From Amyelois transitella (lineage: Eukaryota; Arthropoda; Insecta; Lepidoptera; Pyralidae): a DNA stretch of 64,000 nucleotides. The translations under genes and the position numbers were made by a program. Within the stretch, counting starts at the first letter, position 1; each line of letters starts with the position of its first letter. Under the pieces are notes generated by a model, which worked only from the letters and a program-made list of their open reading frames with translations, was not told the origin of the DNA and did not search any database. The stretch lies in contig NC_083530.1 of NCBI RefSeq assembly GCF_032362555.1, forward strand, positions 3,998,001 to 4,062,000, in the 5' to 3' direction. This document shows, one piece after another, positions 1 through 24,540 of the stretch.

Positions 1-360
1 ATTATGACAAACCAAACGTTCCTTTCCCGACAAACAATAATGGAAACCAGGTATGATTTACACAGGATTACTATATCGCACTTTCGGTGCAACAAAGTCA
101 CAAATAGCCAAAATTGCAATAACGAACTAAGTATGCCAAATTGTTTTTGAATCATACCTTTACTTGGGACAACAAAAAGATCCGCGAAAGTAAACAATTA
201 ATATTGCAAAGATGTTAAACCTACTATAAATAGTAATCGAGAAATGAACAAATACATGAGAAAAAAATTAAAAATTCTTCTCCTGTATATTTAAAAAAAA
301 AAGTTGTTGTGACTTTGTTGCACTCTACTCGATGCGATCTACTGATTCTTCTTTTATGCC
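1..360. other. Intergenic, no gene seen
   Basis: AT-rich sequence with no coding exon or clear repeat that I can support. A 16-codon ATG frame near 245 (Met, basic residues, then Ile/Leu) looks faintly like a signal peptide but stops at once and has no splice donor, so I do not call it. Confidence 0.5.
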
Positions 361-1484: not shown

Positions 1485-2110
1485 CGCGCTCGACGCGGCT
1501 AGCGAAGGCAGGGTATAAAAGAGGCAGGAGGCGAGCGCAAGCTTCATGACCAAGCCAGCCAGGGGGAGACTTCACGCAGTTCTCTCTTCCAGCCTCCCCC
1601 TGAGGACGAAGCTCGGGATCTACCAAACGTACGTCAGATCCCGCCTCACGTTCGCGGCCCCGGCGTGGTACGCATTCTGCTCTGAGACCAACAGGAGAAG
1701 ACTCAGAGCCCAAGAGAACCAAAGTCTCAGAGCAGTCGTCGGAGCCCCGCGCTACGTGAGGAACTCGATGATGCTCAGGGACTTGAAGTGGGAGAACCTA
1801 GATATTCAAGAGGGCGGACGCGTCATCACACAGCCACCTGCGTGGCATCGCGCCGCTCCACTCCGCTCCCTCCGGGCCGTCGGGTGAAACCCTCCCCTCG
1901 CTGCCTTGCGGCTGACGTCGTCAACCAGTGACGACGCCGCCGCTGATGGGAACTCCCAGTGTATGAAGACGTGAAGACCCAGGCCGTCACGGCCACCCCA
2001 TCGACCTGCCTACAGTCGTAGGCAGCGATGATGACATTGAAGAGGGCCAAAAGCCCTCACCAATCTACTCCGACTCCACTAAAGGAGTATGGGAAGACCC
2101 GACGACGGCA
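1485..2110 (+). mobile_element. Jockey-like non-LTR retrotransposon, 3' fragment
   Basis: A reading frame from about 1546 to 1810 encodes the end of a reverse transcriptase. It shows LPLRTKLGIYQTYVRSRLTF, then APAWYAFC, a basic LRAQENQSLRAVVGAPRYVR stretch and WENLDI, the usual C-terminal pattern of Jockey-clade elements. The frame then shifts, and a GC-rich 3'UTR follows to about 2110. That UTR contains the hairpin CTGCCTACAG/TCGTAGGCAG (2006-2025), also present at 6622-6641. The catalytic domains are missing, so this is a dead 5'-truncated copy. Confidence 0.75.
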
Positions 2111-3800: not shown

Positions 3801-4126
3801 ACTTTAATATACCTACGACTAGGTTTAAAATTCTTTAATATGACAAACTCAGTTAGTTTTTGTACCTAAAAAGTTAAGGTTTTTGTACCTATGTATCCAT
3901 ATAATTACCTAATTGTAAGGTTTAATCTACTCGTACAGTAAAAATAAAGTGGTTTTTTTTTATTATAATTTATTCAATCATTTTATTACCATGCTTCAGT
4001 AATTTTAGAATGTTTTGTTTAATTTAGAAACAAAGTGTATATTTTCTTCACGACATTATTCCTTTTCGTAAGAACACGTTGCTAAACTTATAATGATTTT
4101 CATGCCACATTGTCATGCCATTTCAG

Positions 4127-7100
4127 CAACCGACGCCGCCGCCCTACAGGCCTACCCCGCCACCTTACAGGCCGCCCACCCCGCCGAGGCCTACATACGT
4201 CCCACCAGGCCCACCCACGCCCCCACGACCCACTTACATCCCACCGGGTCCCACTCCGGGCCCGGGACCTAGGCCTACACCACCTCATGAGGTAAGTTAA
4301 TTACTTACTTAATAAAAAAAAATTCAAACAATTTAGTCAATCTAAAAAATAAAGTTTTTGAAATTGACCAACCCAACGTAGGAAGGCACGCGTGACGCCA
4401 TTTTTTTAACGCGCGAAAATCTATCGCCGTTTCGTTTTTAAACGGTTTTATTTAGCTCACCCCGTTTGTTTTATTTATTATGACGTGAAACAGGATAGCG
4501 ATTGTTTTTCGCGCGATACGACTCATAGTTTTCTTGCCTTAGATTTGACTAGCTGTTACCCGCGACTTCGTTCGCCGTAAAAGTTTAATGAAAAAGCGGA
4601 CTTACTGTGTGGCCCCTTAGCGGGGGAAGAAATTTTTACATACCACAGTTTTTAAATTGGACCAAACCTAACATATTATATTCCCTCTCGCTCTTACTGT
4701 GTAGTTCATTTTAGAGAAACAAAGAGAAGTAAGATAAAGGCCAAGTTCTTGAATCGACCCCCCAGGAGCATGATAACGCAGGGAGAGTTATAAAGAAACT
4801 ACAATTAGTTCTGTGACATCCTTTAATTGTCGTCTACGTAGTAATCCGGTAGGACGTTGCGTCCTGGAGGTTTCTTGTACGCTTGTGTAGAACGCTGCTC
4901 TTCGAAAGCTGGCTTGCTTGCGAAAGCTTGAGAAAGAGAATAGCAATGGAACATCAACATACAATAGTTTCGTGCCAACGTTTCAAATTGGAGCAAAAAT
5001 ATTTTTTTTGTACGTAGGTATTTATGTTTGAAATGCGATAACTTTCGAACCGTCTTTCTTGAGATATTCACAATTTTCTAATTTCAAGGCGAACAACTAG
5101 TTTACATACCTACATACATAACATGACATCTTTATCGCTTGCGGGGTAGACAGAGCTTAAGGTTTTTATCAAGACCCTAACGTTTAACATGCTCATATTG
5201 CTAGGCATTTACTTAGTTCTAAAACGGAACCAAAATAGTGATGGATTTCTGATGTAAAGCCCATTTCCCAACACCGACTTTTACGGTCTGTGTGGGTCTC
5301 CCAGACTTGCATGGAAGATAGAAATATTTTATGTAAATGTAATTAATATACATACATACATAAAATCACGCCTCTTTCCCGGAGGGGTAGGCAGAGACTA
5401 CCCATTTACTTTAATTATAAATGTGGGGAGTGTGGAGGGAAAGGTCGGAGTGGGAAGACCTAGAAGAACATAACTTGATCAAATTAAGGACGTCCTGGTA
5501 AAGGGTCAGGTCAAAAGTACCCGAAACCGCCGAGCTCACATGAAGAGAGTTATGAATGTGGATGAAGCAAAGGAAATATGCAGAGATCGTGGCAAGTGGA
5601 AAGAGATAGTCTCTGCCTACCCCTTCGGGAAAGAGGCGTGATTTTATGTATGTATGTATGTAATATTATAAAAGTTAATTAGTATTTACTTATGTACACA
5701 AAATTTTATACAAGAAAGATCATTTAACACAGTAATTGTAGTACAAAGGTGCTACTAATTTCAATAGAAATATCTTCCAGTAGACCTGTGAGAGGAGAGA
5801 TGAATATTATGTTATTAGTACGTTATTTACCTGTGGATGTTTTGACAGCCCTGTTTGTTTTGACAATATCTCCGGTTTCTACGTAGTCTGAAAATATTTT
5901 AAAAATACATACCTACATACGCGGCCTATCAGTCTTGTCAAGACTTGGCTCTGACTAACCCGCAAAGGATATAGATGTGATTATATGTATGTATGAATTT
6001 ACATGTATACATATAGTCACGTCTATATCCCTTGCGGGATAGGCAGAGGCAACAGTCTTGAAAAGACAAAGGCTACGTTCTGCTGTATGGCTTTGTGATG
6101 AAATGATGAGATTCAAACAGTGACAGGTTGCCAGCCCATCGCCTACAAGAGGAATCACAAGTGTATAAACCCATCGCTTAGTCGTCTTTTACCACATCCA
6201 TGTGTTCTAATCTAAAACTTAAAACGAAAAATTATACCTTTTATTGTAACAATTATTCATTAAAATTATAAATACAGATTTTTGGTTAAAGTATAAAAAT
6301 TAAAAGCTTCAAGTAAGCTTACCTTCTCCACTAGCTAGAAATTTCAAAGTAAAATTGAAATTAAAAAAAAAAATTTAAAAATAAGAACAAACGGGTATCT
6401 CTCCGTGTAAAAACCTGATTTTCCCAATCCTGAACCGTTGTCATAGGCGCGCCTCCTCTCCATAGAGGTGATGACGTTACCGGGTCACGATAATTACCGG
6501 TATGTGTGACGTCGTGCCGCTTCGGCCTCCCCGGCGCCCGTCTTCACGGCCCGTGAGGCCTATAAAAGCCCGCGCACGCGCCCCGTGTGGGTACCCAGGC
6601 CGCCACGGCCGCCCCATTGACCTGCCTACAGCTGTAGGCAGCGAAGAGGCTAATGAAGCGGGCCAAAATCCTTGAGCATTTATTTCGACTTCCCCTTAGG
6701 GAGTATGGGAAGACTGGGCCACGACCTGTGTGGGTACCCCCTTTGGACTATCAGCATTCACCAAGCTAAGCACCTCGCTACTAAGCTCGCTATTCTCTAG
6801 CGGCTTCTTGCTGGCTCCCGTGTCTATAGCTAAACCCACGACTTCTCTTAACTTGTAAAACTAGTCCAAATAAAGAATAGAATAGATTTATTTTCAAAAT
6901 TGGATACAAGGTATCACTTATTGACGTCACATCACTTAAATCTAATTATAACTACTACCGCTTCAAAAGCGCATGTGTAGATGAAGCGGCGGAATAAACT
7001 ACATTGCAGCATTAAGTTTGTCTTTATTCTAAAAATTGTTTAATAATCTCTCATTTCTCTTACCCTCGACGTTTTACTAAAACGCCACAATGGCGCCCAA

Positions 7101-10100
7101 CGTGGGGCCACTGTACAAATACCGATTTTACCGGTACCGAAGCGACTATTGTCCTTTACGATATCTTAGATTTATCTTACCAGGGTTGTAGTTAGGATCC
7201 ACTGAAAATGCGAAAAGAAGGTGTTAATGCAACGAAATAATATAAAATGCGCTGGTTCAATACCAAAGTAGACATACATACCTACGTATAGAGAGAGCCA
7301 ACATTCTTAAAAAACTGACAGGATACATACAGCGGTATAGCTTAATGTTGGAATTGAGATTCAAATAGAAATATTTATTCAATTCAAATCATAAAATATT
7401 TACAGGCCTCGATCATATATTTATATAATCTATGAAATATGTAACTATATGATAATATAAATGCGAAAGTAAGTTTATTAGTTTGTTTGTTTTCCCTTCA
7501 CGCGTTATCTACTGGCCGAATCTTCTTGAAATTTTGATATATAATTAAGAGTCTGGAAAAAGACCTAGGGTTATTTTTATCCCGGAAAAAAGTTCCGGTC
7601 GAATTTGCAAAACACCTGTATTCTTTTGTAGGTGGCGCTAAAGTCGCGCGAGCGAAGCGGGTATCTATAAGTTTGATACACTTACACGTGATGACTTGGT
7701 CAGTCGTACATCTTGTTGACCTGAGAGTCACGGGGGAGTCTATTACATAGCCGCTTTTAGCCGACAGCTTCTTCGTTCTTTTTCTTTCTATCAAAATTAA
7801 TACACAACTTGTATATGATTATTATGAACTAAAATAGCACAAAAGCAAGTTTTCCAACTAGTGACCCGCTTTGGCTTCGCAAGGGGTTCTGATGTTTTTA
7901 TCTATTAATATATCTGCTCTTTGAATCAAACATTGGGTAGGTTTTTAAGATACAAGGATAGGTACATACGGAGGGACAGTCAGCGTGAAGCGACTTTGTC
8001 TTATGATAGGTAATTTATTTAGGTATGTTTTACCTGAATAACCATCAAGAGCATTGGTTTGCAATTATTTAAAAATATAAGTACTTACTGTTGACAGGCG
8101 GCACTGAAATCAATTAAATTATTTACAAACTAATTTATTACTTCACTTTATCTAAGTACCTCTTTATACAGTTTTTGTTAAATCACAAAAAAGTGAAATG
8201 CTTATAAAGCTTTTACCAAAAAAAAAAATCAAGTACCTACTTAAGTTTTTTTTAAATTACCTATCGCCTCTCTCATCTTGGCGTGCTCCCAGTTGCACTC
8301 TCTGCCATTAAGATTCGGCGCCTGAGGTGCGCTATTATACTAAACCCATACTAATCATCTCTTTTTAAATTATCGAACGAAGCCAGTGAATTCTACTAAC
8401 TACATGCAAAAACATACACACAAACGGGACCCAAACACATTTTTTATCTGATCTGATTTTGATAAAATTAAAAATAGTAGGATCTGTCAATAGAATTTAA
8501 GGCATCAAAACCGTAGTTTTTGAGATATTCACAATTCTAAAAAAATATGTATTCGCGAGGTCTAAGTTCGAAGCGAAAGACTATAGTTATTATAATCACA
8601 TATTAGACCTGAAAGTCACTTACTTAGTCTTTCAGACGCATATCCATGTTTACTTAGTACTTCTCAAGATTTCATAAAAAAAAAAGAAAACATAAAAATT
8701 TTGTCAAAAAGCAAAAAATTAAAAAATAACATTTTAAAAACATTGAATCAAATTTTAACGGTTTGTTTGAAAAAAAATTTTTTTTTCTCTTTCATTAAAT
8801 TGAAAAAAATATATTTGGCTTCTTTATAAGATCTTTGTCAGCTAAAAACAACGTGTAAATAAAACTACATACTTTAAAAAATCACCAAATATAAGCTTTT
8901 TTACCTGACACTGACCAGACTGACTGGCATACGAAATGCAATTTTATTGTTACTACCAATCAACATTTTTGTAAATACTTTGTACTAGATGGCGCTGAAA
9001 ATAATCGCGAGTCTACGTTCGTGGCGAACGACTAGTTAGTGATTTTAGACTTTATTCGCTTCCTTCATTTACAAGGGGATATTGAGCAGACATGAAATAT
9101 CAGTGTAGTGTGTAGGAAGTGCATATTTGTGTCAAGTATTACCTTTTCTGTCTTCAACACCTGAAACATAGATGGTAGATTTTTTAAAGTAAATTAGGTA
9201 ACATATTTTTAGACGTTCATATCTCACTGCATACATTGTCACAAGTTTACACTAGACGAATGTGGCTATATAAAAATAATGTACACTAATTAATACAACA
9301 CTAAAAGGCCAAAATGTGATTAATAAGTACAATTACGATAATTAATGACAGCGCTTACTTGAAAGATGTACTCCATAATCTGTTTAAAAATGGAAAAATA
9401 TACGTTTAATATTTAACATACAAAAAAACCTACGTGACAGCTTTAAAACTCAACTTAAATAACTTTCTACTTACCTAAATCTAATAATTTCTGTCTATTA
9501 TCTGAAAATAAAGGAAAACTAATTTTGATTTCTTTGACAAAGACTCCTGCCAATAATCTTATTCACACTTCTAAAGATCTTAGGCGGAGTATGACCTAAC
9601 AGTCTCTTCGAGACAGTTGGCTCTGCACCGTAAGGTATAAAGACGTGATTAAATGTATCTAAGGGTTCGTATTCGTGCTCTTGGCATGAATCCTCATCCT
9701 TACTAAGTAGGTTCCCAAGGTCTGACTATGACCAGGACCCCAGAGAAACATTAGTCGTAACCTCCTATTTTCTATACATACCATTATACTTTCGGAGCTC
9801 ATCTGAAATATAAATTTCAATTGTATTTAATTTCGTATCAGCTCAAGCCGTCTGGCTCACGATAAACTGGAATGTACAATTAGTTACCCTACATGGAATT
9901 CTATGACACAGTAATAGAGTCGAATTTTCAGTAGATTTGGGTAGGTACTGTATTTCTCTATTTCTTTAACTTAAGAAATAAGCGCTTTTATCTTGTGGCA
10001 CAAGCAAGAAAGCAACATAATTACACCTGGTTTAGGTAACCCCAATGATTGATAAATATTTTCTAATTAACCCGCACCTACTCCTTCACGCAATGTTTGT

Positions 10101-11850
10101 AAACCACGAAAAAAATTGACCTCAAATGTGATGTATAATAATTCAAAGAGATCGAAGATCGAGAGAGAAGATATAAAATAGGAATTTTATATCATTTCTT
10201 ACTTGGATTTTTGTGTATGGCTCCGATGGAACTTGAAATCATTAGAGAGGAAACCTGAAAATAATGTAGCCGAAATAAATAACTTTAAAATTTAAGCTCC
10301 GGTAAGGTAGGGATGATACACAGACAATTTATATTAGGATAAGATCTTTTTCAAGGAGTCAGTAGTTATTTCTCTCCTGTCCAAGCTTTTGTGTGTTTTC
10401 CAAAAATAAGACTATGTTTTAATTTATCCAAAAAAAATAGTCTCAGATCAAGTACTCAGATTTGAAAATTAACTTTAAATTTCATAAAATCGGTTCGCTG
10501 GCCGTAAGCGTAACAGACAGCCTTTAGTATTTATAATATTAATATGAATTTATAATAATCTTACAGAAACAATAAGTAAACATCTCTTCATTTTCCTTGT
10601 ACAAACTGCGATCACAATCATTTCTAAAACACTTAAAAATTGCGAAAGTTTTTAACGATTTTACCATGGAGATTGTACGATTTTATTTCTGCTGCGATAA
10701 CTGCTTTACCTATAATATTGTAAACTCTGCCTCTGTGGCCCAGTTGTAATATGCATGCGTCCGAGTTAAAGTCCCAGGTTAGATACCTGATTCTGCCTTA
10801 ACAAGATATTGTGTTTTAGGTATGTTTTTTTTTGGTATTTTAAGGGATCAACTGTCAGAGACAAACATCCCAATTGACTTATTACCCATCGCGGTATAGG
10901 TAACAAAAACATTTAGGTAGTCTACTTACTAGGTACGTCTTCTCAAAAGATACCTAGGTACTTACTTAGGTTTATTTAGTACGCATGCACCGAATACTAG
11001 TCTCTCATCCTTTTATATCTACACGTGCACTGAACAATATTTTTATTCCTTCCCAGGAGCACGACCACCACCACGACGAGCATCATCACCACGAACCTGG
11101 CATGCCCTTCGACTTCTCGTACGCCGTGAATGAGGACGGCAACGATTACAGTCACAACGCCATCTCTGACGGTGACGTCACCAGGGGAGAGTATAGAGTG
11201 GCGTTACCTGATGGTAGGACCCAGATTGTTAAGTATACCGCTGATTGGAAGAACGGATTCAATGCTGAGGTAAGTCATCATCATTGTTATTTTAGAAGTG
11301 TTTGTACCAGTTGCATCCTTGAGCGGAGTAGCCAGTGAGCGACTGGGGATATCGACTAACCATGGACAATTCAGAAATATGCAAGTCAAGTAATTTTATG
11401 AAATAACAGTCCTATCTGCTTATCACTTGGTTACAGGAAAAACCTAACAAAGCCTACATGTTCTAGATAAAGTCACTTCTCAGCATCAAAGCTAGGAATG
11501 ATATTCAAAGCGCTCAGAAAAGGTTTGGCGCTATAGAATTTTTTGATGATTTTTCTATGTAGTCTTTACGGCATCCACATAAAAGAGATGAAATCTTTCT
11601 CTTCTACTCTACCCGACAACACACTTAAAAGCATTTGCTTTCTAAAAGCTTGTATGCCTAGTAAGGAATACAACGAGACATGCAAAATTATATCATCCAA
11701 TCAAATCTATAACATTCACAGGTGAGCTACGAAGGTGAGGCTAGATACCCCGACCAGCAGCCCGGATATCCCTCAGGGGGTCCTGGAGCCCAAAGCGGGC
11801 CTGGTCAACAATATGTACCACCAAGCCAAGGAGGCGGTTACCAGTATTAG
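4127..11850 (+). CDS. RR-type cuticular protein (pro-resilin-like), 5' end missing
   Basis: Three exons are visible, all joined in phase 0: 4127-4291, 11057-11269 and 11722-11850 (stop TAG 11848-11850). Each has an AG acceptor; exons 1 and 2 end in GAG|GTAAGT. Exon 1 encodes 55 residues of proline-rich repeats (PTPPPYRP, RPTYVPPG). Exon 2 begins with a His/Asp run (EHDHHHDEHHHHEP). It then carries a Rebers-Riddiford chitin-binding domain: FSYAVNEDG, DGDVTRGEYRVALPDGRTQI, KYTADWKNGFNAE. Exon 3 completes it (VSYEGEARYP) and ends in a Gly/Pro/Gln tail. YTAD...GFNA is RR-2-like, while LPDGRTQIV and YEGEA recall pro-resilins. Such proteins are secreted and bind chitin in cuticle. The signal-peptide exon is not in the visible sequence. 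The 6.8-kb intron holds an unrelated gene on the other strand. Confidence 0.88.
4388..4600. repeat. Degraded repeat with Helitron-like end
   Basis: Around 4390-4530 lies a repeat with CGCCGTTTC and GACGTGAAAC stretches, also seen at 29228-29335. At about 4550-4580 a minus-strand Helitron-like terminus (CTAGCTGTTACCCGCGACTT) follows. This is in the cuticle-gene intron and downstream of the antisense microexon gene's stop. Confidence 0.5.
4823..10254 (-). CDS. Microexon gene, 111-aa protein, possibly myofilin-like
   Basis: Exons on the minus strand, in order: 10254-10203 (ATG at 10242), 9802-9782, 9501-9475, 9379-9359, 9160-9143, 8103-8089, 7201-7181, 6334-6323, 5887-5831 and 4926-4823 (stop TAA 4825-4823). 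Lengths are 52, 21, 27, 21, 18, 15, 21, 12, 57 and 104 nt. Every visible intron is phase 1, with a GT donor (mostly GTAAGN) and mostly TTTCAG or TTCTAG acceptors. The frame stays open across all nine junctions. The product has no signal peptide, is hydrophilic, and includes ELRKYN, RQKLLDLDYGVHLS, KVPPVN, YVETGDIVKTNRAVKT and a C-terminus NVLPDYYVDDN. I do not firmly recognise it. Myofilin, an insect thick-filament protein with many spliced isoforms, is my best guess from memory. It is nested antisense in the cuticle-gene intron. A 5'UTR exon, or an alternative first exon spliced to 10254, must lie upstream. Confidence 0.8.
5345..5400 (-). mobile_element. LINE 3' tail fragment
   Basis: On the minus strand it reads TCTGCCTACCCCTCCGGGAA, then GAGGCGTGATTTTATG and (TATG)n. 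It is the 3' end of the LINE seen at 5415, 44262, 56262, 56425 and 59246. It is severely 5'-truncated and placed head to head with the next copy. Confidence 0.75.
5415..5665 (+). mobile_element. LINE 3' end with C-terminal coding remnant
   Basis: Across small indels it encodes the end of a reverse-transcriptase protein: GRPRR, LDQIKDVLVKGQVK, RVMNVDEAKEICRDRGKWKE, then VSAYPFGKEA and a stop. The 3'UTR is very short and ends GTGATTTTATGTATGTATG. I read it as an RTE-type LINE, but the clade is uncertain. Confidence 0.75.
5915..6205. repeat. Tail-to-tail pair of SINE-like copies
   Basis: A + copy (about 5920-5998, 3' part only) ends in (TATG)n and meets the tail of a minus copy (about 6000-6205, lacking only the extreme head). 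The pair lies in the intron between microexon-gene exons 5831-5887 and 6323-6334, which appear unaffected. Confidence 0.8.
6430..6730 (+). mobile_element. Jockey-like LINE 3'UTR, second copy
   Basis: GC-rich sequence matching the 3'UTR at 1970-2090: CCAGGCCGCCACGGCC, then the perfect 20-bp palindrome CTGCCTACAGCTGTAGGCAG at 6622-6641, then a GGGAGTATGGGAAGAC end. Only the 3' end survives. Confidence 0.65.
7091..7108 (+). mobile_element. LTR retrotransposon primer-binding site (tRNA-Lys)
   Basis: TGGCGCCCAACGTGGGGC is the exact complement of the 3' end of a tRNA-Lys including CCA. It directly follows sequence ending in CACAA, as an LTR ending in CA would. The preceding 200-350 bases, including an AATAAA, may be a decayed LTR, but I cannot set its start. 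This is a remnant of a Gypsy-like element. Confidence 0.6.
7455..7690 (+). repeat. Helitron-like repeat remnant
   Basis: It starts near TATAAATGCGAAAGTAAG and includes ATCCCGG and TAGGTGGCGC stretches. It resembles 30850-31075, which ends in CAGCTAG. The same family appears in reverse at 31083-31297. No coding potential. Confidence 0.5.
8905..8919 (-). other. Candidate optional 15-nt microexon
   Basis: On the minus strand it lies between CAG and GTAAAA. It is 15 nt long and open in phase 1, adding five residues between the KVPPVN part and its preceding exon. Both splice sites are weaker than those of the ten main exons. Confidence 0.2.
9704..9721 (-). other. Candidate optional 18-nt microexon
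   Basis: On the minus strand this is bounded by CAG and GTAAGG. It is 18 nt long and open in the phase-1 frame of the surrounding microexon gene, adding six residues (junction Asp, LGNLL, junction Asn) between the second and third exons. The pyrimidine tract is weak, so it may be a chance match. Confidence 0.3.
10722..10800 (+). repeat. Degenerate tRNA-like SINE head
   Basis: A box A-like TGGCCCAGTTG at 10736-10746 and a decayed box B GGTTAGATACC at 10777-10787 are spaced as in a tRNA promoter. No cloverleaf forms convincingly, so this is an old tRNA-derived repeat and not a tRNA gene. Confidence 0.45.
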
Positions 11851-13270
11851 AAGAGTGGCGCCCAACGTGTAACGCGAAATGTGATCTTATAACTGTACGA
11901 TGTTTTAACGTTTCTATGGGAATAACTGACAAGACTTGAATAGCTCTATAACTCTTTATCTTTAGGTGGGTCAGCAGTATATTTGAATTTATTTTTGGCC
12001 AGTATATAATTGTGAGAATTTTTTTTATTGCTCTTTAGCTTTCCGCGGCATATAAAAGGACATTTCACAAACCACAGAACTGTGTAAATTCTGAAAAAAT
12101 TTGAGATTCTAATTGGCATCTGGCTACTGTGTGGTAATTATTACAATGGGCCATTGTCTAATGCAATATAATAGTTGTGAAATAGGTCCAAATGAAAGAC
12201 AACATGTGGTGACTATTATATGCTTATAATAAATTTTCACGAGACGTCAATAACCCGTAGAAAAGTTAAGACAAAAATTTTACGAATTGTAGTTACCGAA
12301 TATAGTTACCATTTAGTTATAATGTTTATTTTAATGGCAATATGGAGGTGCTTCATTTTTTCTAGCTCATAGTGAGCTGCTGATTGACTTATTTAGTTAA
12401 CTGTCTGTAGATAAAAGTTGAACAATAATTTTATACATCTACCTAAATGTTGTTATCACAATGAAAAAACTTTAGGTATTCATTAACCCATTTTAATTGC
12501 TAGAAAATGCTTTTTGTTCTTTCGTATAATTCATACAGAAGAATTAGACACTTTCTGGATGGGTATGGGCAATTTTTCATATAAAAATCTTCAACGCAAC
12601 TCCCACAGAGTTGAGTTTAGACTTACGTGCAGGGCACAATACCAACTGACATAAGGTATATATTTTTCACAATTACTTTATTAATTTTGTACAACAGTCT
12701 CTATTTTCTTTATAAGAAAGGACATAATGTTACATTATATAATTTTTTTATGTTTTTGTAAAAATACAAATAACAGTATCTATTTTCTAAGGCTGTCGCA
12801 CCAATATTTGAATCTTGTACCTTGAAGTGATCTAAATAAGTGTTTAAGACTTATTATTTAAGATTAAAAAAAAACCTTGAAAAATACTCATGATACTGCC
12901 GTACTTGTATATTTATTGTATAGTGTAAAAATAATATTTGCGAAATTATTATAATAAAATACCTTTTGTACCTAATTTTTTTACAAAATAAAATAATAAG
13001 ATTTAATAATAAATTGTTTTGTTTTTATTTTACTACAATACAAAACGTCTTACATAAAAATACAGCTTAAGTAAACAAATATTTCTGAACAAATATTACA
13101 AATATTTCTCTCTTAAGAAAAGTTTTCTGACCTGAAAAATTAAAGAATTATCTAAAGAAGCTTAAAAGCCTTAATTTCTTGGTTGTTGGTTCTTGACATT
13201 CAAGATTGTCTACAATCTATCTACATCTACAATTATTATACTATGTACCTACTTAAAGCAAAATATATAT
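11851..13270. other. Convergent 3' regions of cuticle gene and ZAD gene A
   Basis: No coding exon. On the + strand AATAAA occurs at 12228-12233 and 12953-12958, usable by the cuticle gene. A TTTATT near 13025 can serve gene A on the minus strand. Confidence 0.55.
11856..11869 (+). other. Primer-binding-site-like motif in cuticle-gene 3'UTR
   Basis: TGGCGCCCAACGTG matches the first 14 nt of the tRNA-Lys primer site at 7091 and starts six bases after the cuticle-gene stop codon. No LTR precedes it, since coding exon 3 is there. It is either a remnant or a coincidence. Confidence 0.4.
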
Positions 13271-14661
13271 TCAAATACTACTTAATACTGGCAACACATC
13301 TCCAGTGTCATCCAAAAACTCATAATTAGACTGATGAAAATGCGTTTTTGGATTGTCCACCTTCTGTGCATGGACTCTTTTAATGTGTGCATTTAAATCC
13401 TTAACTAGGGCGTAAATTTTTCCACAAATACTACAACATTCATTTCTCGTGCCATGTTTCCTCTTAAAATGGTCTGACCTGCGTCCTGAAGTGATGAACT
13501 TCGCTTTACAAATATTGCATTGGTACGGTTTCTCTCCAGAATGTAAACGTAAATGTTCTAATAATGTTTTCCTACAAACAAAATTTACACCACACTGCTC
13601 ACATGTCAAATTTTTCGCATTTGTGTGTGTCATTGCATGTTCTGTTAGATTACTCTTCTTATAAAATCCTTTTGAACAAATTTGACAGACAAAAGGTCTT
13701 ATGTGAAGATGATATTTATTAATATGAGCTTGTAAAGTACATTTATTCAAGCTCCTATATTCACAATCATTACAGTAATAATTACTTTTATCTTTTCGGT
13801 GTACCCTTTTAATACCTTCATGACATTTTACATGTATCTTAAAATGGGAATGAGTTTTTAAAATTTTTGAACAGTATGGACATGCTTTTTGTCTGTGACA
13901 ATTTAGGTGAGCTTTTAATGAATTAGGTGTTTCGCAAACTTTTCCACAAGTATCACAAATGGTTGACTCATTTTTTATGCATATGTTTTCAATAGCTCCA
14001 TGAAGTCCTTCTGAATTAACATTATCATTACATTTCTTAATACCAATCTTATCCTTGTTGACATTATCAAATATTGGCACTTTGATGTGTAATTTTATTG
14101 GCTGGTTAGTGATTTCTTTATTTTTAGTCAAAGCATTAATTATATTATCCACTATTATACTGCACATCATTTTCTTGGTGTCATATCTTCGTAAAGTGAG
14201 ATACATAGACAGAATAAGTTTAGTGCAATTTTCACATACTTCTTCAAACATAATTTCCTGAAAAAAAGTAAAGCAACTATGTATCCATGTTTCTTTTATT
14301 TCCATTTATTTAATTACTTTAGCATGTTTATCAGTTGTTTAGAAAATATCTGCTTCATAGAAAAAATAGACCTACATAGGTCCACACCTAGTGGTACTTT
14401 CAAATAAGAATAAAACCTCACACTTTATTTTAAGATTGCAGAAATATGCGAACTAACTAGTATACACTATAATTTAAAACTTTCACTTACATGTGAAGGA
14501 AATAAGTACATCATCATAGTGTAAACACAAGAAGTTAAATTTGTATTTTCTTCGTAAATATAGAGTTCCCCAAAAATATTTTCCAAATGTTCGTTTTTCT
14601 TAAAACAAAGAAAGCAAAGTTTCATGTTACGAGATAAAACCACATTTCTAAAAACATCCAT
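13271..14661 (-). CDS. ZAD C2H2 zinc-finger protein A
   Basis: Exon 1 is 14661-14491 and exon 2 is 14257-13271, joined in phase 0 (CAT|GTAAGT donor; TTTTTTTCAG acceptor), for 385 residues. I chose the ATG at 14661 (MDVFRNVV) because the frame upstream has only a GTG. The ZAD zinc-binding pairs are CFLC (about residues 16-19) and CENC (about 65-68), split by the intron. About seven C2H2 fingers follow, ending in HIKRVH. ZAD domains form homodimers, and these proteins are DNA-binding, probably nuclear regulators; the target is unknown. It is divergent from gene B and convergent with the cuticle gene. Confidence 0.88.
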
Positions 14662-16046
14662 GATTGCAATCACAAAAATAACAGATTGGAAATTTCTTTA
14701 ATCTCTCTATCAAATATTTATTTCGAATATTTTCTGAAGTAAAAACTTTGTTTCAATTTTGTTTTGTTGAATTGAAGTATATTATTTTCAAGGTGAGACA
14801 TTCACATAGTTTGACAATGGCAGACGATCAATCGAATGACATGATATGACAGAATAGAACATGCAGAGTAGCCAACTCAGCTTTCAGCGCCATATCTGGC
14901 GGCTTTTTGGCCACGTCAAAAAATCAAGTGGGTTTTTATTAAGTTACGTCTAAACGCTCAAACGGAGCTTAGCCCCAAGGGCCCATTTTCAATATTGTAG
15001 CGTTTTGTTATATAGATATTAAAATATTTCACATACTTTGAAGGTAATTCAAGGTTAAAACATACATACATATGGTCACGTCTATATCCCTTGCGGGGTA
15101 GACAGAGCCAACAGTCTTGAAAAGACTGAATGGCCACGTTCAGCTATTTGGCTTAATGATAGAATTGAGATTTAAATAGTGACAGGTAGCTAGTCCATCG
15201 CCTAGAAAAGAATCCCAAGTTTGTAAGCGTATCCCTTAGTCGCCTTTTACAACATCCATGGGAAAGAGATGGAGTGGTCCTATTCTTTTTTGTATTGGTG
15301 CCGGGAACCACACGACACGTTGTTAAAAAGGCTTTACGCAAATTCGTATAAGTTTGCACTAAACTTGAACAAGTAATAATAAGGGAAATATGATCTAAAA
15401 ATCGTTTGCGCGAATTATTGGCAATCTAGCGCTTTTAGGGACAGATTTAGAACCTACTCATTGAAGATAGTTGGCAACAGGAATAACAAATAAAATATTA
15501 AATTTATAAATTTGAACAAAACTTGTGCATTGAATATGTACCTACTTATTGTTTATTAGAAATAAATCCATTTTAAATAAAAGAAAACGCAAGATCATCA
15601 AAAGATTTAAAAAAGTATACTTATTCAAAAACTCTACTTATCGAGGTAAGAATTTCGACAAGTTTTTTAAGAGAAACGTCGTACTGGAACAGAACCGTAC
15701 AATTTTACCCAACTTCAAATGAGGAGGATTACTCAGTTTGGTTCTTTGTAAGAAGGTAAATTGGAGTCGCTCTGTATATTGGATTACTCCAGTAATGATA
15801 TCGTCTGCATACGGACTTTGGGCTCCGCACGAGGACGACGCAATCTGAGCATCACGAACAACTATGTTAAAAACATTACTAAAACCAAGCCTCTTTAGAG
15901 GGGTGGCATAGGCTACATATTTTCACATTCTCCACATCTTGCTTCTTCATCCACATCTATAATTGTATTTATGCAAAATTGTCGATTTAGAGTAAAATAT
16001 TTAGACCAGAGTTTGATTAAGTATATCTTTATTTCCAGATAAAACT
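14662..16046. other. Divergent intergenic region between ZAD genes A and B
   Basis: Shared 5' flanks of two divergent zinc-finger genes, interrupted by a SINE-like copy. An acceptor-like TTTATTTCCAG at about 16029-16039, just before the gene B ATG, suggests an upstream 5'UTR exon. A short stretch around 15912-15965 resembles the LINE fragment at 44300. No other coding exon is seen. Confidence 0.5.
15060..15318 (-). repeat. SINE-like repeat, full-length copy
   Basis: All blocks are present from the GTGTGGTTCCCGGCACC head to the (TATG)n tail, with little divergence from the copies at 51108 and 61221. It sits in the shared promoter region of ZAD genes A and B. A GTTAAAA stretch near both ends may be a target duplication. 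Confidence 0.9.
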
Positions 16047-19001
16047 ATGGCAGACATACCTGAAATTGGGAACATAGCACATTTGAAACAAAAACTTAGG
16101 AACATTTGCCAAGCGGAGAAGTTTTGCTGTATATGTTTGGAAAATACAGAGAAACTATGGCAGTTAGAGACCGAGTTTGATATCGCAGTAAATGGACGAA
16201 CACTAAAGAGAAAACTCAATGAGTTGGTCTACTATTTATTTGGAGATGTAATACCTCTTATTTGCTACTTGATAAAAAAATGAATAGGTTAACTCTTTAT
16301 TACACCAATAGAAAAAGAAAATCAGAATAACAAAAATAGGCTAAGAGGCACAAAGGCGGTTTTCACTAAAAGAATCTCTTCCAAGCAACCTCTAGGTGGG
16401 AGGAAAGTAATGAATAGAAACTTGCATACTTTTTCAAAGTAATTTCACCTCTAAAGTTAGTCCCAACTTTTATAATCCATAATTATTAAACATGGGATTC
16501 TTCTTATAGGTGATGGGCTCTCAACCCATCACTATTTGAATCTCAATTCCATCATTAAACAGTACAGCTGAATGTGGCCTTCCAGTCTTTTCAACATTGT
16601 TGTCTGTGTCTTCCCTGTATTGGGATGGAGATATGATAAAATTATATTTACTAACTTTGCTTACTTTATTTTACAGTGGAAAGGAGTAACAGCAAGTATC
16701 TACATATGTAGCTACTGTACAGAGAAAAGCATACAGTCTTATTTATTTATCTACAATGCTAGACAACTTTCCAGAATCATGTTGAGCTATATAGAAGACA
16801 TATCAAACAAAATCAATTATGTAAATGGTCAAATTGAAACAAATTGTGATTTCAATAATTCCAATTTCATCATTGTGCTTGATGAAAATGAAGCTAACAT
16901 CAATAATTACTTGGATATTAATGCTAAAACTGAAATAACAGCTAAAGAATCGTCTCATTCACATTTTCACAAAAAAAAGGGGAATCCAATAAAAAAGTTA
17001 GATGATGAAAATATAACTGTGATGTTTAAAGCACCCGAAAATAATTCTACAAAATCTTTTAGGAAAAAGAGAAAGTTTTCTAAGACTGTTATCTACAAAT
17101 GTTTGAAATGTAAAATAGCATTATCAACATTAAATGAGTGGAATCGACATGAGAAAATATGCAAACATCACAGAAGAGTTTGTAAGATATCTCGAGCAGC
17201 ACAGTGTACCGTTTGTTATGAAGTTTTGAAAACACAAAGATTATTATCGATACACTACAAAATGATTCATCAAATGGAAAGATGCAAGATTTGCTACTTG
17301 ATAATGCCGGAAGGAGGGCTACGCGATCATTTGAAACTGAACCATGCAGACGATATCCATACGTGCGAATTTTGCGAGCACATAACTTACTCCGCATCAG
17401 CTCTAGAAATACATACGAAGAAAAAACATGGCGACCCTCAATGCATTATGTGTTTAAAGAGCTTTAAACTTTTAGATCTACGGAGTCACAAATGCAAGTT
17501 TGGGTGTTTAGATTGTAAGGAGATACCTTGTATTCATCACAGATATTTAATTAATTATAGAGAACAAGTGTTGAATGAAGCTGACAAAATTCAATGTTTA
17601 GACTGCGATTATGTGTGTCCCAAACGTGAAACTCTGCTTGGCCACGTGAACCGCGAGCATTTAGACCACCACCCTTTCACATGCGCACATTGCTCTCAAC
17701 AATTCTACTCGAAAGTGACTTTGAGGAATCATTTAAATAATTTTCACAAAGACAATTACGCGTGCGAATTTTGCGACGGACACTTTAAATCTCAATCCAT
17801 TTTGGACGAACACGTTGAGATATGCAAATGGATTAAGAGGCATCATAAATGTGAGGATTGTGCCTCATCCTTTGATACTCTGCAAGAATTACAGATTCAT
17901 AAAAAATCTAAACATAACGAAGAAACATTCCCTTGCAATTTGTGTAATAGGAAATTCTTTTCCGTTTTAAAGCTTAAAGAGCACACATTTAGAATACATT
18001 CAGGCATTCAGATAAAGAAAAAGAGGAATGCTTTGGAATGTACAATATGCGACATCAAATTCATTGAAAGAAAAGAATATAAGCAACACATCGCTTCACA
18101 TGGTTCTGGAAATAGTATAAAATTTCCATGTAAAAGTTGCGATAAGGACTTTGATGATATAAAGAAGCTTCAAGCTCATACGCGCATGCATGACGATGAC
18201 GTCATCAAGTGTAATCATTGTAAGAAACTAATAACTGCACCCTTCTATCCCCAACACATGATATATTGTGGGGCGAGGAATGAAGAAAATAATCTATCTT
18301 GTGAAACGTGCGGCAAACAATTTCAAACAGAAATACTTCTTAAAATGCACAGGCAAGTTCATTTAGACCGAATAACTTGCCAAATATGTGGGAAATTAAT
18401 CAAGCCCGCATACCTTAAAAGGCATTTGAAGTTCTCTCATGGTCAAGCAGATAGAAAACCCAAGAAGAATTTGAAAGCTATCAAATGTGAGTGGTGTGGC
18501 CACATGGTCACGCGGAATGGCGAATTAGAATCCCATGTGAATAGATTCCATTTGAAGATAAAGCCTTATGAATGTAATACTTGTAGCAAAACATTTTGCG
18601 GAAAGGAGCGGTTGCGTGAACACATACAGACTCATTCCAGTGAACACACGCGCTATTGTACAGTTTGCGGTAAAAAATTCGCCAATCAGGTTTGCTTAAA
18701 AATGCATTTACGATTACACTCTGGAGTTACGCCTTACGCGTGTGATATGTGTGGTGAGAAATTTAGGTCATCGAGTATGATGAACACACATAAGATAAAG
18801 AAACACACAGAGAAGACTATACCATGTCCATTGTGTGACGCCATGTTTTATTTAGCGAGGGAAATGCGTCCCCATTTCAAGAAAGTACATTGGAAGAATA
18901 AGGGTCAGAAATTCGATCCAAGAGACGTGAAGGAATTGAAAGAAGAATTTTATTATTTATTTGAAGATCGTAGAATACCTAAAGTGAACGACAAAGAGTA
19001 G
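16047..19001 (+). CDS. ZAD C2H2 zinc-finger protein B, about 20 fingers
   Basis: Exon 1 is 16047-16247 and exon 2 is 16677-19001, joined in phase 0 (GAT|GTAATA donor; TTTATTTTACAG acceptor), for 841 residues. The ZAD pairs are C27-x2-C30 and CSYC (about 78-81), split by the intron as in genes A, C and D. An acidic/polar linker and a basic stretch (about 150-180, FRKKRKF) follow, then about 20 C2H2 or C2H2-like fingers to the C-terminus. Several fingers end in His-Cys (HEKIC, HVEIC, HMIYC), and some lack the TGEKP linker. A frame extends upstream of exon 2 to 16572, but that part is SINE sequence in the intron. Target DNA is unknown. Confidence 0.9.
16493..16650 (+). repeat. SINE-like repeat in ZAD gene B intron
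   Basis: A 3' part of the common repeat from GGGATTCTTCTTATAGG to the tail. It ends about 30 bases before the exon 2 acceptor and creates the false upstream extension of that reading frame. Confidence 0.75.
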
Positions 19002-19907
19002 TATTAGTGTTCTCATGGTGTATCTCACCAAATCAGGGGATACATTACTCCCCCCTCCCCTCCCCATTTGTTTGAATTTCAAACCTAACCAGATAAGAAG
19101 ACATTTTGTAGCGAAAATATTAAGGTAGTTTTCTAAACACTTATACCTACTTATAAGCATACTGGAATACAATCTGTGACCGAAAGTTAGTTTTTTCAAT
19201 ATACCTATGTATGTAATAGTAAAACAATAAATATCATTATAAAATAGTATATTTTCTGAAAAAATTACTACAATAAATCTTATAACTAAATACATTCCAT
19301 AATCTTCTTACATTTATTTTGTTGATGCAACACTGCATAAATAAAACTAGGGTGTTCAAAAATATAAAACAGGTGTGCCATTTTGAAATTATAAAGATCT
19401 TTTCCGTCTATCTGTTCTGGAAGGCTATTCAAGAATGATAATAAAGTCATTAAATAGAATGCAGGTTGGGTGAACCCAGAGGTATAAACTTAGTTTTTAC
19501 AATGATAATAAGTGCAACTGAGTGATGTCCAAACCTTTTATCTAGTCGATCTTGCTGGCAAGGAAATAAAATGATCGTGCAGAAGCTATAGAAGAATTTT
19601 TGGAGAATGTAGTATAAACCTCGAAATTAAGGAAATCTTAGCTTCATTTACAGAGAAAATAAGATTTTTCTAACTTTGTGAATAATCCCGTTGGTAGTGT
19701 TAAAACCAAATTATATACCAAGGTGTTCTTCAATCAAAAATATCTGACACCATAACGCATTTTTTTAAATATAATTTTACTAGGACATTATTGAATTTTT
19801 CACTGTGACTAAAATATCAAACTATTTCATTAGAACCATAATTTTCTACAATTATATTTATATTCTACTATAAAAGATATTCTACATAAAACTATTTCAA
19901 AGCTATG
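19002..19907. other. Convergent 3' region between ZAD genes B and C
   Basis: No coding exon. AATAAA at 19226-19231 is a plausible gene B polyadenylation signal. A C-rich run lies at about 19050-19066. No clear repeat is seen. Confidence 0.5.
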
Positions 19908-22900
19908 CTAAATATTATTATGAGCTATATTTAAATGAAGTTTCAGTTCATATTTATTTGCAAACACACTCTTACAGGGCTTACAACAGAACTTACCGCC
20001 ATGGAATATTTTCATATGATTCCTCAATTTTCCTTGAGAATAGAAGTTTTGCGAACACAAAATACAGGTATAAGGCATAGCCCCAATATGTTTTCTTACA
20101 TGAATAACCAATGCCTTTCTAGACTTCAAGCTTTTATTGCAAAAATTACATTTTTCCCTCGAAAACATGCTGTGTACTTTCTTATGATGGTTCAAATTCG
20201 TATCAGTATAAAATTGACTCTCGCACATGTCACAACTGTAAGGTTTTATTTGCAAGTGGACCTTATTCACGTGGACTGTAAGGTTGTTATTGTTTGCGCA
20301 AGGTTTCTCGCAGAAACTACATGTTTGAATTTTCTTTTCTTGAAGAAGCCTTAATTTTGCAGTGTGCCTTTGCCAGTGATTGTCGAATTGCTTTTGTTTT
20401 GCAAAAAATTTGTCACATAATAAACACTCTTTTGTGTTATGAGTTTTCACATGCTTTATCAAATTTTTTGCACTAACAAATGTCCTCCCACAAGTTTCAC
20501 ACGAGCTGTGATTGATATTTCCTAATAAATGCACCATTTTTGTGTGCTCATGTAAGTGAAACTTTGATTTGAACTGTTTTTGACATATCTTGCATTTTAC
20601 ATTCTTAAAAACATGTCTAACAATGTGACTTTTCAAGAAATAAATTGAAATAAAGCGTTTATTGCACATGGGGCAGGATATTTTAGACCAATCCACTCTT
20701 TTAGGCTTTCTTTCCTTTTTGAATGTTAAAAATTCTCTACAGACATTACTGATAGAATTATAACTTGATTTCGATTTTAATCTAGATTGTAAACCGTTAA
20801 TTCCCTTTCCATATGTTTTTGTTATATGCCTGGCTGGATTGTTAGCCAACTGTTCTATTTCCTCAGCAGTGTCATGGAAAACTGAGTTAGTTTTCTCTGT
20901 CACCTTTCGCGATGTCGTTTCTATATCGCTTTCACTTTCAGAATCTTTAGTTCTGAATTCATCTTCTAAAACTTCCACATTTAGCTTAGATTCATCTACC
21001 TCATCTGGGTCAACAAGTAGACTTTCATCTATTAAGTCTGGTTCTTTTGCTGGTAATATTATATTCTGTGATATCTCAACAAATATCTTTCCATCTGGTT
21101 CACCAACATTACCTAGACTATCAAGCATTAATTCGACACATGTTTTCAACCTATTTCGAACATAATGAGCATGATTTAGGAACACATAAGATGTAATTGC
21201 ATTGTCTAGGCATTTTTTACAAATCTTTGATCCTGTGTATGTACTAAGGATATTCATCTGCAACAAAAATAAATAATGGAATTAAAACAAAAATAAAACA
21301 AGCAAGGAGGGAAAGTCTAGGTGTAATGTTATTTACATTTTAATACCTACTAAAAATTGCCAGTAATATATTAACATGGATATTAAAGATACAGCAACGC
21401 AGAGCTCTTGTATCAAATATATCATGTAAGAAGTAATTAAAAAAAAATTACATCCTACAGAAAATTCTTTGGCGTATACCAAAATTCATAAGATTCAGCC
21501 AAATAAATTACAATTCTCTTTCTTAATTTAAAACAATTATAATCCTGGTAAATGAAGAGATAAGTAAGATAAATAGTATTTCTTCATATTACACTACTTA
21601 TGAAAAGAAGTTGCCATTCTTCTTATAGGTCTTTTAAATCTCCTGGATTTTTTCCTTTCATAATCTGATGATCCTGCTCCTATATTGAAACATAATGGGT
21701 TATTTGAGACTTGCATGAAAGGGATTGGCAGTTCAATAACAGATGTAGTCTTTTGAGAATCAATAGCTTGATTGATCAATAACTCATTTTGAAGATTACA
21801 TTCTTCTACATCCATTTCTTCTTGTATTATGTGTGTATCATGGCTTGCTATAGGATATTGTTCAAAATGTGTATTTGCTGATACTGGCTCCATTGCAATA
21901 TTTTTTGTTATATCTGAAATATCTTGGTTTGTCTCTTCAAAATTTGCAAATTTAATTTTAGTACCTTCTTGAATTAAAGGCTCCATTTCAATATCTTTCA
22001 GAGCATTTTCTTCATTAATCGCAGTTGGGCTTTTATTGGCAGCATCAGTTTCAAAGAAAGATCTATTTATGCCAAGATTTAATTTAATATGATCAGTGTT
22101 TCCAACATGATGATCAGAATCACAACAATAACATTTTTCATTATTTCCATTATCTGTTAAACAATATTTGCATTGCCATTTGGATCTTTTACTTCCCAAA
22201 ACAAAAGAATCTACACTCTTCCTTTTGTTTGTTAGCATTAACTTACTATATTCAGAAACATCAGAGGTGGTGTTCAATTTTATTTTTGAGTTACTGTTTC
22301 CATTGTTAGACTTTTGACAATAATGACATTTATCAGTACATTTAAAAATCCAACAATACTGACATTCCTGCACAATGGGAACTTCAATTTTGTTATTTTT
22401 GTTTGTGAAATCAGCTTTTAATTTGCCATCTCCATTGATTGTTTGAACTTTACATTTCCCAAATATCCAATCAACTTTAGAATTTAAATCAGTTGTACAG
22501 TCTGATGTTGTATGGTTGGATATTGGTATTTGAATTTCAACAACATTAGTTATATATTCTGGATTCGAAAAAGTGAATGAACACTGTTTGTCTGTGGTAA
22601 TACTACCATTAATGAAACATTCAGTTGCTTCTTTCATATTATCAATAGTAGCTAAATTTTCAACCATTTTATTTTTTACTTGCATATTTGTTTGTAGGCT
22701 ACAAACTTCACTTTGGTTCACAATTTCTTCTTCACTATCATTTTTAGGACTCAAAATTTGCTCTATATGTATTGGGTTGTCAAAGAAGAAAATGTAATTG
22801 TCAATAATAAAATATGTTTCTCTAGAAATCACAACAGGATCTGATAGAGAAAACTTGTGATATTTTGCCTTTTTCATAGCAAAACATGATTTATCTCCAT

Positions 22901-23317
22901 TTAGTTGGTAAACCTTCTTGGTTAAAGTTAGAACATTTGCTTCATATGGTACCAGTAATTCTCGGTACTTGTATGAACTTCGCTAGAAAAGGATTACCAA
23001 CATAAAGACTTTTTACTTGCAAATGTTCACATCAGCAATAACATCAAAATGGCAAAATAAAATATAACAACATACCATACCTACAAAATACTTGGTAATA
23101 TTTCTTAATCTGATATAATTTCATGTATAGGTGGGTTAATTTCTTTTAAATATGTCATGCAATTGTAAAAACTTACCTCAGGCATTGTAGATCCGAGAAT
23201 AGTGTACAGACTTCTATGACCAGTCAGTTCTGGGCATCCACCATGGAAATTAATGGTTCTGTCCAGTTTGACCATACTGACCCCTTTTGAGAGGCAGACA
23301 GTACATAATTCATCCAT
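19908..23317 (-). CDS. ZAD C2H2 zinc-finger protein C
   Basis: Exon 1 is 23317-23177 and exon 2 is 21257-19908, joined in phase 0 (GAG|GTAAGT donor; TTTTGTTGCAG acceptor), for 496 residues. The start ATG has an AAAATGG context. The ZAD pairs are C5-x2-C8 and C60-x2-C63. An acidic linker (about 110-175) follows, then nine C2H2 fingers. Exon 1 lies inside the last intron of gene D, and the intron contains the last exon of gene D. Its ATG is 27 nt downstream of D's exon 2 donor and in the same frame. C may therefore start from an internal promoter, or be spliced from D's promoter as a D-C fusion. Confidence 0.82.
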
Positions 23318-24540
23318 TTTACTTTCAATCAAATGTTCCATTACCATATGGAACTTGTGCTTTTCAATATGCTGCAAGTGTTGATCATATGTTTCACTCC
23401 CAACATCGCACTCCGAACACTTATAATCTGTATCAATCAAAGTTTTAGATTTTGACGGTTCATGAGCAGATTTCACATGTTTTCTATAAACATGTCTTTT
23501 GGCAAAAGATTTTCCACATATACGGCAATTAAACCACATTGATTTAGGATGAATCTTCTCATGATATAATCGAGATTCTAAGCTTTCAAACCTCAGCCAA
23601 CATTTTGGACATTCTAGTTCATTAATTTTATTATCAATATTTTCTGTTAACTCAGACCCTATGTTAACAATATTGATGACTGGATCAGCATAATCAATAA
23701 CGTTTTCATGTTCAGAGTGCAACTTGTTATAATTAGGATTCAGTTTTTGTCTGCCTCGCTTTTTAGTGCGCTCCAGGGGATCAAGCTTATCAAGTTTTTC
23801 ATACATGTCTTCAAAACAGTTGCGTAGAGCTCTCCCACTACGCTCGCACTGTTGAGTAAAAAGGTATGATTGAATTGTGTTCTCCAAACATTGATTGCAT
23901 ATTTTTGTAGGAAAATTCGGATCTGCCAGCACCTGAAAAGTTGACAACCAGGATTAAAAGGTAAGAAAGTTATAGTTTAATGTTGTCTTTACATTAAAAC
24001 CAATTTTATTAATAACACTTTAAATAGCAGAGGGTGCAACTTGGAAATAAGCAAAGATGAGAGAATGACACAAGGAAGAAGTGGCTCTAAAACCAAACAG
24101 ATAAAATTTTTTAGAAAATAATTACAAGCATTGCAATGCATTTTAACGCTACCTATTCCATATATTCTAACTTAAAATAGTAACCAGTGAAAATATTATA
24201 GAATAAGGTTCAAACATACCTGAAATGGATAAAAACTAGCAACCATATCCCGAATGGTAACTTTGTAAAGAGCACCTTGACTTGCAATTTGGAATACTTG
24301 GTCCATTTCATATAGAGGAGAATCTACATTCATGCAGTATCGACAAACTTTATATTTCAAAGTTCCTTCCAGTAGAAACTTTACCGCCTTTTTTGTCGTC
24401 AGCGGCTCCCTCTTCAAATTACAAACACCTGTGATAGTTACGTTTGTTTCTTCTTCATCATTTATATCTTCTCCGCCAGACGTAGAATCATTTCCTCCCG
24501 TTTTAGGAATGAGGAATTCAGAAAATTCATCTCCATCCAT
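21594..24540 (-). CDS. ZAD zinc-finger protein D with long Cys-cluster tail
   Basis: Exons are 24540-24220, 23932-23345 and 22982-21594, all phase 0, for 765 residues. Donors are CAG|GTATGT and ATG|GTAATG; acceptors are CTTTTCAG and CCTTTTCTAG. The ZAD pairs are CRYC (66-69) and CNQC (119-122). Exon 2 adds a basic KKRGRQK stretch and three C2H2 fingers. Exon 3 begins RSSYKYRELLVPYE and carries a 462-residue tail with two Cys clusters (CQYCWIFKCTDKCHYC; CKYC...CYCC) that may bind zinc, and a basic C-terminus (RRFKRPIRRM). I do not recognise the tail. The join of exon 2 to exon 3 is inferred from phase and splice signals. The alternative is that exon 2 reads on into gene C. Confidence 0.75.

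What the first reader, a model, noticed from the sequence alone, without database searches (positions are those of the whole stretch)
4823..10254. A nested antisense gene made of phase-1 microexons
Ten exons, seven of them 12-27 nt, chain on the minus strand inside one intron of a cuticle gene. All nine visible introns are phase 1, every exon bounded on both sides is a multiple of three, and the frame stays open to a stop, giving 111 residues. Any internal exon can be skipped or included without breaking the frame, so the locus could make many isoforms. The chain of phase and splice agreement is seen directly. The function is not; a myofilin-like muscle protein is a guess.
Basis: partly seen in the sequence, partly recalled or inferred. 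Interest (0 to 1): 0.88.

Follow-up and report, generated by a model that had tools for sequence, protein, structure and literature searches.

The report
Nested antisense gene of symmetric microexons
Inside one intron of an insect cuticle gene, on the opposite strand, lies what looks like a real small gene cut into ten pieces, most of them tiny and all joinable in any combination without breaking the reading frame, which matters because ordinary gene finders tend to miss such genes.

Summary
Ten minus-strand exons (10254-4823) join through nine GT-AG introns, all phase 1. The eight internal exons (12-57 nt, seven of them 12-27) are multiples of three; the frame runs from an ATG at 10242 through 111 residues to TAA. 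All 256 skip combinations stay in frame. A chain of eight strong phase-1 microexons was not reached in 640 or 10,932 simulated 64-kb strands at the stricter threshold (longest 5 and 6); at a laxer one, 2 of 10,932 reached it. Outside the locus, 268 kb of this genome gave no chain above two. The host is a Chitin_bind_4 cuticle gene. The myofilin guess fails: no Pfam match, and myofilin lies on another contig. No signal peptide or cysteine was found. By my reading of its phase wording, the structure passes the published aphid bicycle classifier (0.9996, cut-off 0.72), but sequence features do not fit. Splice sites are strong, so constitutive inclusion is as likely as isoform variety. No transcript could be tested, no homologue was found in insect-poor collections, and the own-genome protein search did not complete.

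The parts
10203..10254 (-). exon 1 (52 nt); ATG at 10242-10240; ends in phase 1; preceded by a good acceptor, so probably not the first exon of the transcript
   Evidence: acceptor 9.25, donor 7.31 bits
9782..9802 (-). exon 2, 21-nt phase-1 microexon
9475..9501 (-). exon 3, 27-nt phase-1 microexon
9359..9379 (-). exon 4, 21-nt phase-1 microexon
9143..9160 (-). exon 5, 18-nt phase-1 microexon
8089..8103 (-). exon 6, 15-nt phase-1 microexon
7181..7201 (-). exon 7, 21-nt phase-1 microexon
6323..6334 (-). exon 8, 12-nt phase-1 microexon
   Evidence: weakest acceptor, 5.22 bits
5831..5887 (-). exon 9, 57-nt phase-1 exon
4823..4926 (-). exon 10, 104 nt, terminal coding exon with TAA
4470..4479 (-). 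overlapping AATAAA motifs 344 nt past the stop codon, still inside the host intron; possible poly(A) signal, weak (223 such motifs in the window)
1..50 (+). end of the host exon that begins 88 nt left of the window with ATG and a signal-peptide-like stretch
4127..4291 (+). host cuticle-gene exon, proline-rich, phase 0
4292..11056 (+). host intron (6,765 nt) that contains the whole minus-strand chain
11057..11269 (+). host exon encoding Chitin_bind_4 (PF00379, 54 bits)
11722..11850 (+). host last coding exon, TAG

Best explanation
A genuine protein-coding gene lies antisense inside one intron of a cuticle gene. SHOWN from sequence: ten exons, nine phase-1 GT-AG introns of 95-1039 nt, eight symmetric internal exons, one open frame of 111 residues, nesting on the opposite strand, all 256 skip combinations open. 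INFERRED: it has its own promoter upstream of 10254 (with at least one upstream, perhaps untranslated, exon, since exon 1 has a strong acceptor), and the spliceosome recognises the tiny exons because each has strong splice sites on both sides. The product is a small (12.5 kDa), hydrophilic, probably disordered, non-secreted protein. Because every internal junction is phase 1 and every donor-side base is A or G, a skipped microexon removes 4-9 residues (19 for exon 9) and never shifts the frame or makes a stop at the junction. The microexons are thus either constitutive or tuneable short linear motifs; I cannot tell which, and lean slightly to mostly constitutive inclusion with occasional skipping.
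For: Exact exon/intron model; strong sites throughout; chain length beyond all 640 and all 10,932 simulations at >=13.3 bits; no chain above 2 in 268 kb of the same genome outside the locus; locus excess of lengths divisible by three (9 of 12); only one of six frames free of stops; purine-rich first and pyrimidine-leaning third codon positions; all 256 combinations open; host gene is a Chitin_bind_4 gene whose intron holds the chain; no hydrophobic leader, GRAVY -0.95.
Against: No transcript and no homologue was seen. Sequence searches gave nothing in Pfam, PDB (one hit, E 0.7), 5.8 billion proteins, viral contigs or prokaryote contigs; I take these collections to hold little or no insect gene sequence. 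Codon evidence is weak (+4.0 bits; 6.8% of random concatenates reach it; synonymous score -6.6). The ATG context looks poor by my own recall. At the laxer threshold 2 of 10,932 simulations reached a chain of 8 or more. Site weights were recalled and thresholds set afterwards.
Confidence: 0.8

Rival explanations
1. The chain is a chance alignment of splice-like sites in an AT-rich intron.
Against: At >=13.3 bits 0 of 640 and 0 of 10,932 simulations reached 8; real control sequence never exceeded 2 at either threshold; the test did not count the in-frame ATG and the 104-nt open terminal exon.
Confidence: 0.06
2. Real antisense transcript, but a non-coding RNA or a decayed gene whose frame no longer matters, perhaps acting on the cuticle gene by transcriptional interference.
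For: Antisense position; no homologous protein found; weak coding score.
Against: Eight of eight internal exons are multiples of three and stop-free in one frame, which non-coding exons need not be.
Confidence: 0.08
3. The ten exons are the 3' part of a longer gene whose earlier coding exons lie right of 10254, possibly beyond the host exon at 11057-11269, so it is interleaved rather than nested. (This overlaps with the best explanation; it disputes only the 5' end.)
For: Exon 1 has a strong acceptor (9.25 bits) and is open upstream of the ATG (V-S-S-L-M). A coding exon ending in phase 0 would join; a hydrophobic candidate at 10912-10787 exists.
Against: That junction would be phase 0, unlike the other nine; the candidate is one of 31 from a mechanical scan and its donor is middling (6.6 bits).
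Confidence: 0.25
4. It is a secreted, fast-evolving effector-like gene of the kind known from aphid bicycle genes or schistosome micro-exon genes, with extensive isoforms.
For: Symmetric microexons; every internal exon starts at codon position 2, as the paper says of almost all internal bicycle exons; the published structure-only classifier gives 0.9996 against a cut-off of 0.72 under that reading (PMC9168663 sections 6 and 17).
Against: No hydrophobic leader and no cysteine; if the paper's phase is read as intron phase the classifier gives 0.00002; that paper found no homologues in its sampled Psylloidea, Aleyrodoidea or Fulgoroidea (section 11).
Confidence: 0.06
5. It is a myofilin-like muscle protein.
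For: None by sequence. Microexon genes in flies are enriched for actin-filament and neural functions (PMC8042270 section 13 part 1), which is a general lead only.
Against: No Pfam match at E<=10; myofilin itself is at C14:6871894-6874605, best piece 103.7 bits, with a sequence that looks different by eye, and no tblastn hit on it among the 30 listed; no MEF2-like motif between 8478 and 13002, though four lie at 5411-8477.
Confidence: 0.03

Closest known systems
Aphid bicycle genes (Stern and Han 2022, PMC9168663; read: abstract, sections 6, 11, 17 and passages)
   Same: Many very small internal exons, almost all starting at codon position 2; passes the published structure-only classifier under that reading.
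   Different: Ten exons against an average of about 17; no hydrophobic leader, no CYC motif (no cysteine at all); outside the aphid, phylloxerid and coccid lineages in which they were reported; no family of such genes detected here.
Schistosome micro-exon genes, MEGs (PMC5825161; passages only)
   Same: Short symmetric exons that can be skipped in frame.
   Different: MEGs have about 80% of coding sequence in 6-36 bp exons and almost without exception a secreted or membrane-anchored product; here 40% (135 of 336 nt) and no leader found.
Fly neuronal eMIC-dependent microexons (PMC8797185; passages only)
   Same: Very short, in-frame exons.
   Different: Those have extremely weak 3' splice sites with UGC close by; here sites are strong and TGC appears within 50 nt upstream of only 2 of 10 acceptors, at -30 and -19.
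Vertebrate fast skeletal troponin T mini-exons (recalled, no call)
   Same: A run of in-frame mini-exons that can be combined.
   Different: Known muscle gene with known isoforms; no sequence relation tested beyond Pfam and PDB.
Drosophila Gart / pupal cuticle nested pair (recalled, no call)
   Same: A gene nested antisense in an intron, one partner a cuticle gene.
   Different: There the cuticle gene is the guest; here it is the host.

Membership tests
Myofilin (PF15929) | sequence match to the Pfam model | tested here: not met
   0 families at E<=10; myofilin of this genome is on contig C14
Aphid bicycle genes | many small internal exons starting at codon position 2; classifier probability over 0.72 | tested here: inconclusive
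   0.9996 if exons starting at codon position 2 count as phase 2 (paper's wording), 0.00002 if counted as phase 1
Aphid bicycle genes | N-terminal signal sequence (reported for many or most members) | tested here: not met
   (simple hydropathy scan; no dedicated signal-peptide program; an unseen upstream exon cannot be excluded)
Aphid bicycle genes | CYC motifs (absent in some divergent members) | tested here: not met
   no cysteine in 111 residues
Schistosome MEGs | about 80% of coding sequence in symmetric exons of 6-36 bp | tested here: not met
   135 of 336 nt, 40%; definition
Schistosome MEGs | secreted or membrane-anchored product | tested here: not met
   (hydropathy scan only)
eMIC-type neuronal microexons | weak 3' splice sites with UGC close to them | tested here: not met
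   definition
Nested antisense gene | all coding exons within one intron of a gene on the other strand | tested here: met
   for the ten exons found (5' end of the transcript not located)
Alternatively spliced microexon gene | isoforms with microexons skipped are made | not testable with these tools
   no RNA-seq; only frame compatibility shown

The most novel reading that the evidence does not exclude
An intracellular insect protein built largely from interchangeable phase-1 microexons has evolved the same gene architecture as aphid bicycle genes independently, giving up to 256 in-frame isoforms of a tuneable disordered protein. It would show that this architecture is not a mark of secreted parasite effectors.
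Probability: 0.18. Interest if true: 0.75.

Novelty: new variant of a known kind. Interest (0 to 1): 0.5.

Why it matters
If real, it is a gene that ordinary annotation is likely to miss, because most of its exons are very short. It would also caution that many symmetric microexons of one phase, the feature used to find aphid effectors, can occur in an apparently non-secreted insect protein. The locus makes a clean test of how consecutive exons of 12-27 nt are spliced and whether symmetric microexons are used combinatorially or simply kept.

Tried and rejected
Myofilin: rejected. Homology by protein, solved structures, viral contigs (27 pattern matches, none confirmed) and prokaryote contigs (154, none confirmed): nothing; I take these collections to be poor in insect sequence. 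A weak tblastn pair on C14 near 1,088,118 looked like exon 10 but has stops, does not keep the spacing, and its second half lies in what reads by eye as a transposon tail. Upstream signal-peptide exon: 31 mechanical candidates over 10255-30000, of which the 25 most hydrophobic were printed; none convincing. MEF2-like motifs: 34 in the window against 26.3 +/- 5.8 expected, none between 8478 and 13002. Rfam: nothing at the gathering threshold for 4000-12000. The bacterial promoter scan was run but is irrelevant for an insect gene. PMC2238819 (passages) gave only a cited 3-bp troponin T microexon. Ten paper searches showed, in their listings, no report of this gene or of a lepidopteran gene of this build; they are keyword searches of open-licence papers only.

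Full report
Observation. The minus strand of 4823-10254 was read directly and the exons placed by exact match. Ten exons of 52, 21, 27, 21, 18, 15, 21, 12, 57 and 104 nt are separated by introns of 400, 280, 95, 198, 1039, 887, 846, 435 and 904 nt. All nine introns begin GT, end AG and fall after the first base of a codon. The joined frame gives 115 residues from the acceptor and 111 from the first ATG, ending in TAA.

Is it more than chance? I scored sites with generic insect splice-site frequencies recalled from general knowledge, not trained here. The ten acceptors score 5.2-10.9 bits and the nine donors 6.7-11.0, where 8.7% of GT and 9.7% of AG on that strand exceed 5 bits. Taking microexons of 9-60 nt with both sites at 5 bits or more and a sum of 13.3 or more, open in phase 1, the longest chain with introns of 60-1200 nt is 8, exactly the eight internal exons. 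In 640 order-4 Markov strands of 64 kb the longest chain was 5 (two cases); in 10,932 order-5 strands it was 6 (one case). With the sum lowered to 12, the observed value is still 8; 0 of 640 reached it but 2 of 10,932 did, with 8 and 9. In real sequence from the same genome outside the locus (64.8 kb to its left, 103.7 kb to its right, 100 kb of another contig), both strands, no phase gave a chain above 2 at either threshold. Density of strong candidates is 2.17 per kb in the locus and 0.39 per kb elsewhere, and 9 of 12 against 81 of 214 have lengths divisible by three. The thresholds were chosen after the locus was known, so these are strong but not clean probabilities.

Coding evidence is modest. 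Only the proposed frame lacks stops; the other five have 6-8. Against codon usage of five long ORFs of the window the log-odds is +4.0 bits, with random concatenates from the region at -8.3 +/- 8.5 and 6.8% of 20,000 reaching it; the synonymous part alone is -6.6. First codon positions are G/A rich (0.33/0.32). The frame-conserving lengths are the better argument.

Setting. On the plus strand the host gene has an exon ending at window base 50 that starts 88 nt left of the window with ATG and a signal-peptide-like stretch, then 4127-4291, 11057-11269 and 11722-11850 with TAG. The third of these coding exons matches Chitin_bind_4 at 54 bits. The host intron 4292-11056 holds the whole chain. AATAAA motifs lie at 4470-4479 on the minus strand, 344 nt past the stop, but the motif occurs 223 times in the window (162 expected). 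Exon 1 has a strong acceptor, so an upstream exon probably exists; whether it codes is unknown. A scan of 10255-30000 listed 31 ATG-to-donor candidates in the right phase; of the 25 most hydrophobic, which were printed, none is convincing.

Product. The protein is 12.5 kDa, pI 6.1, GRAVY -0.95, with no hydrophobic leader and no cysteine or tryptophan. Nothing matches in Pfam, PDB (best E 0.7), the large protein set, viral contigs or prokaryote genomes. I do not count these as a fair test for insect genes. The one fair own-genome search did not complete; tblastn on the 274 kb held found no other copy. Myofilin is excluded as a family: the genome's PF15929 gene is elsewhere and looks different.

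Mechanism. Every donor-side base is A or G, so no skip can create a stop codon across a junction, and I enumerated all 256 include/skip combinations: 256 of 256 are open, 47 to 111 residues. This shows that isoforms are possible, not that they are made. In flies, 283 of 411 flanked microexons are alternatively spliced (PMC8042270 section 13 part 1), which favours regulation in general. The sites here are strong and lack the weak acceptors and nearby UGC of eMIC-dependent exons, which favours steady inclusion. I therefore leave the isoform claim open.

Comparison. [quoted passage not shown] The exons here also start at codon position 2. With the published coefficients the gene scores 0.9996, over the 0.72 cut-off; if one instead takes phase as intron phase 1 the score is 0.00002. 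Sequence features do not fit, and the paper found no homologues in Psylloidea, Aleyrodoidea or Fulgoroidea. So the locus is an architectural look-alike, not a shown member. Schistosome MEGs share symmetric microexons but differ in share of coding sequence and in secretion.

Verdict. A real, nested, antisense, microexon-built gene is the best reading (0.8). Its function is not established. The finding is a new variant of a known kind: symmetric microexon genes are known, but here in an apparently non-secreted insect protein inside a cuticle gene. Whether reference insect proteomes already hold it could not be checked.

Noticed in passing
window 33726-39065 +: A 1,779-residue open frame that looks like the gag-pol of a Bel-Pao-type retrotransposon (label recalled, not tested); noted only.
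   Followed up: no
window 13271-14305 -, 16572-19001 +, 19908-21281 -, 21594-22982 -, 23105-23953 -: A cluster of five long ORFs, most of them C2H2 zinc-finger-like by eye (no family search run).
   Followed up: no
window 5348-5407 and 5600-5659: Inverted repeat, 60 nt arms 93% complementary, inside the last intron of the nested gene; reads like a small folded-back mobile element.
   Followed up: no
window 1519-1887 + and about 6590-6720: A reverse-transcriptase-like fragment, and two similar GC-rich tails (near 1970-2100 and 6590-6720) that look like 3' ends of the same non-LTR element (by eye).
   Followed up: no
88 nt left of window base 1 (L004) to window base 50: Host cuticle gene's signal-peptide exon starts with ATG directly after an acceptor-like AG, so a 5' UTR exon probably lies further left.
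   Followed up: partly
window 10787-10912 -: A hydrophobic 42-codon ATG-to-donor stretch in the phase that could join exon 1; probably chance.
   Followed up: partly
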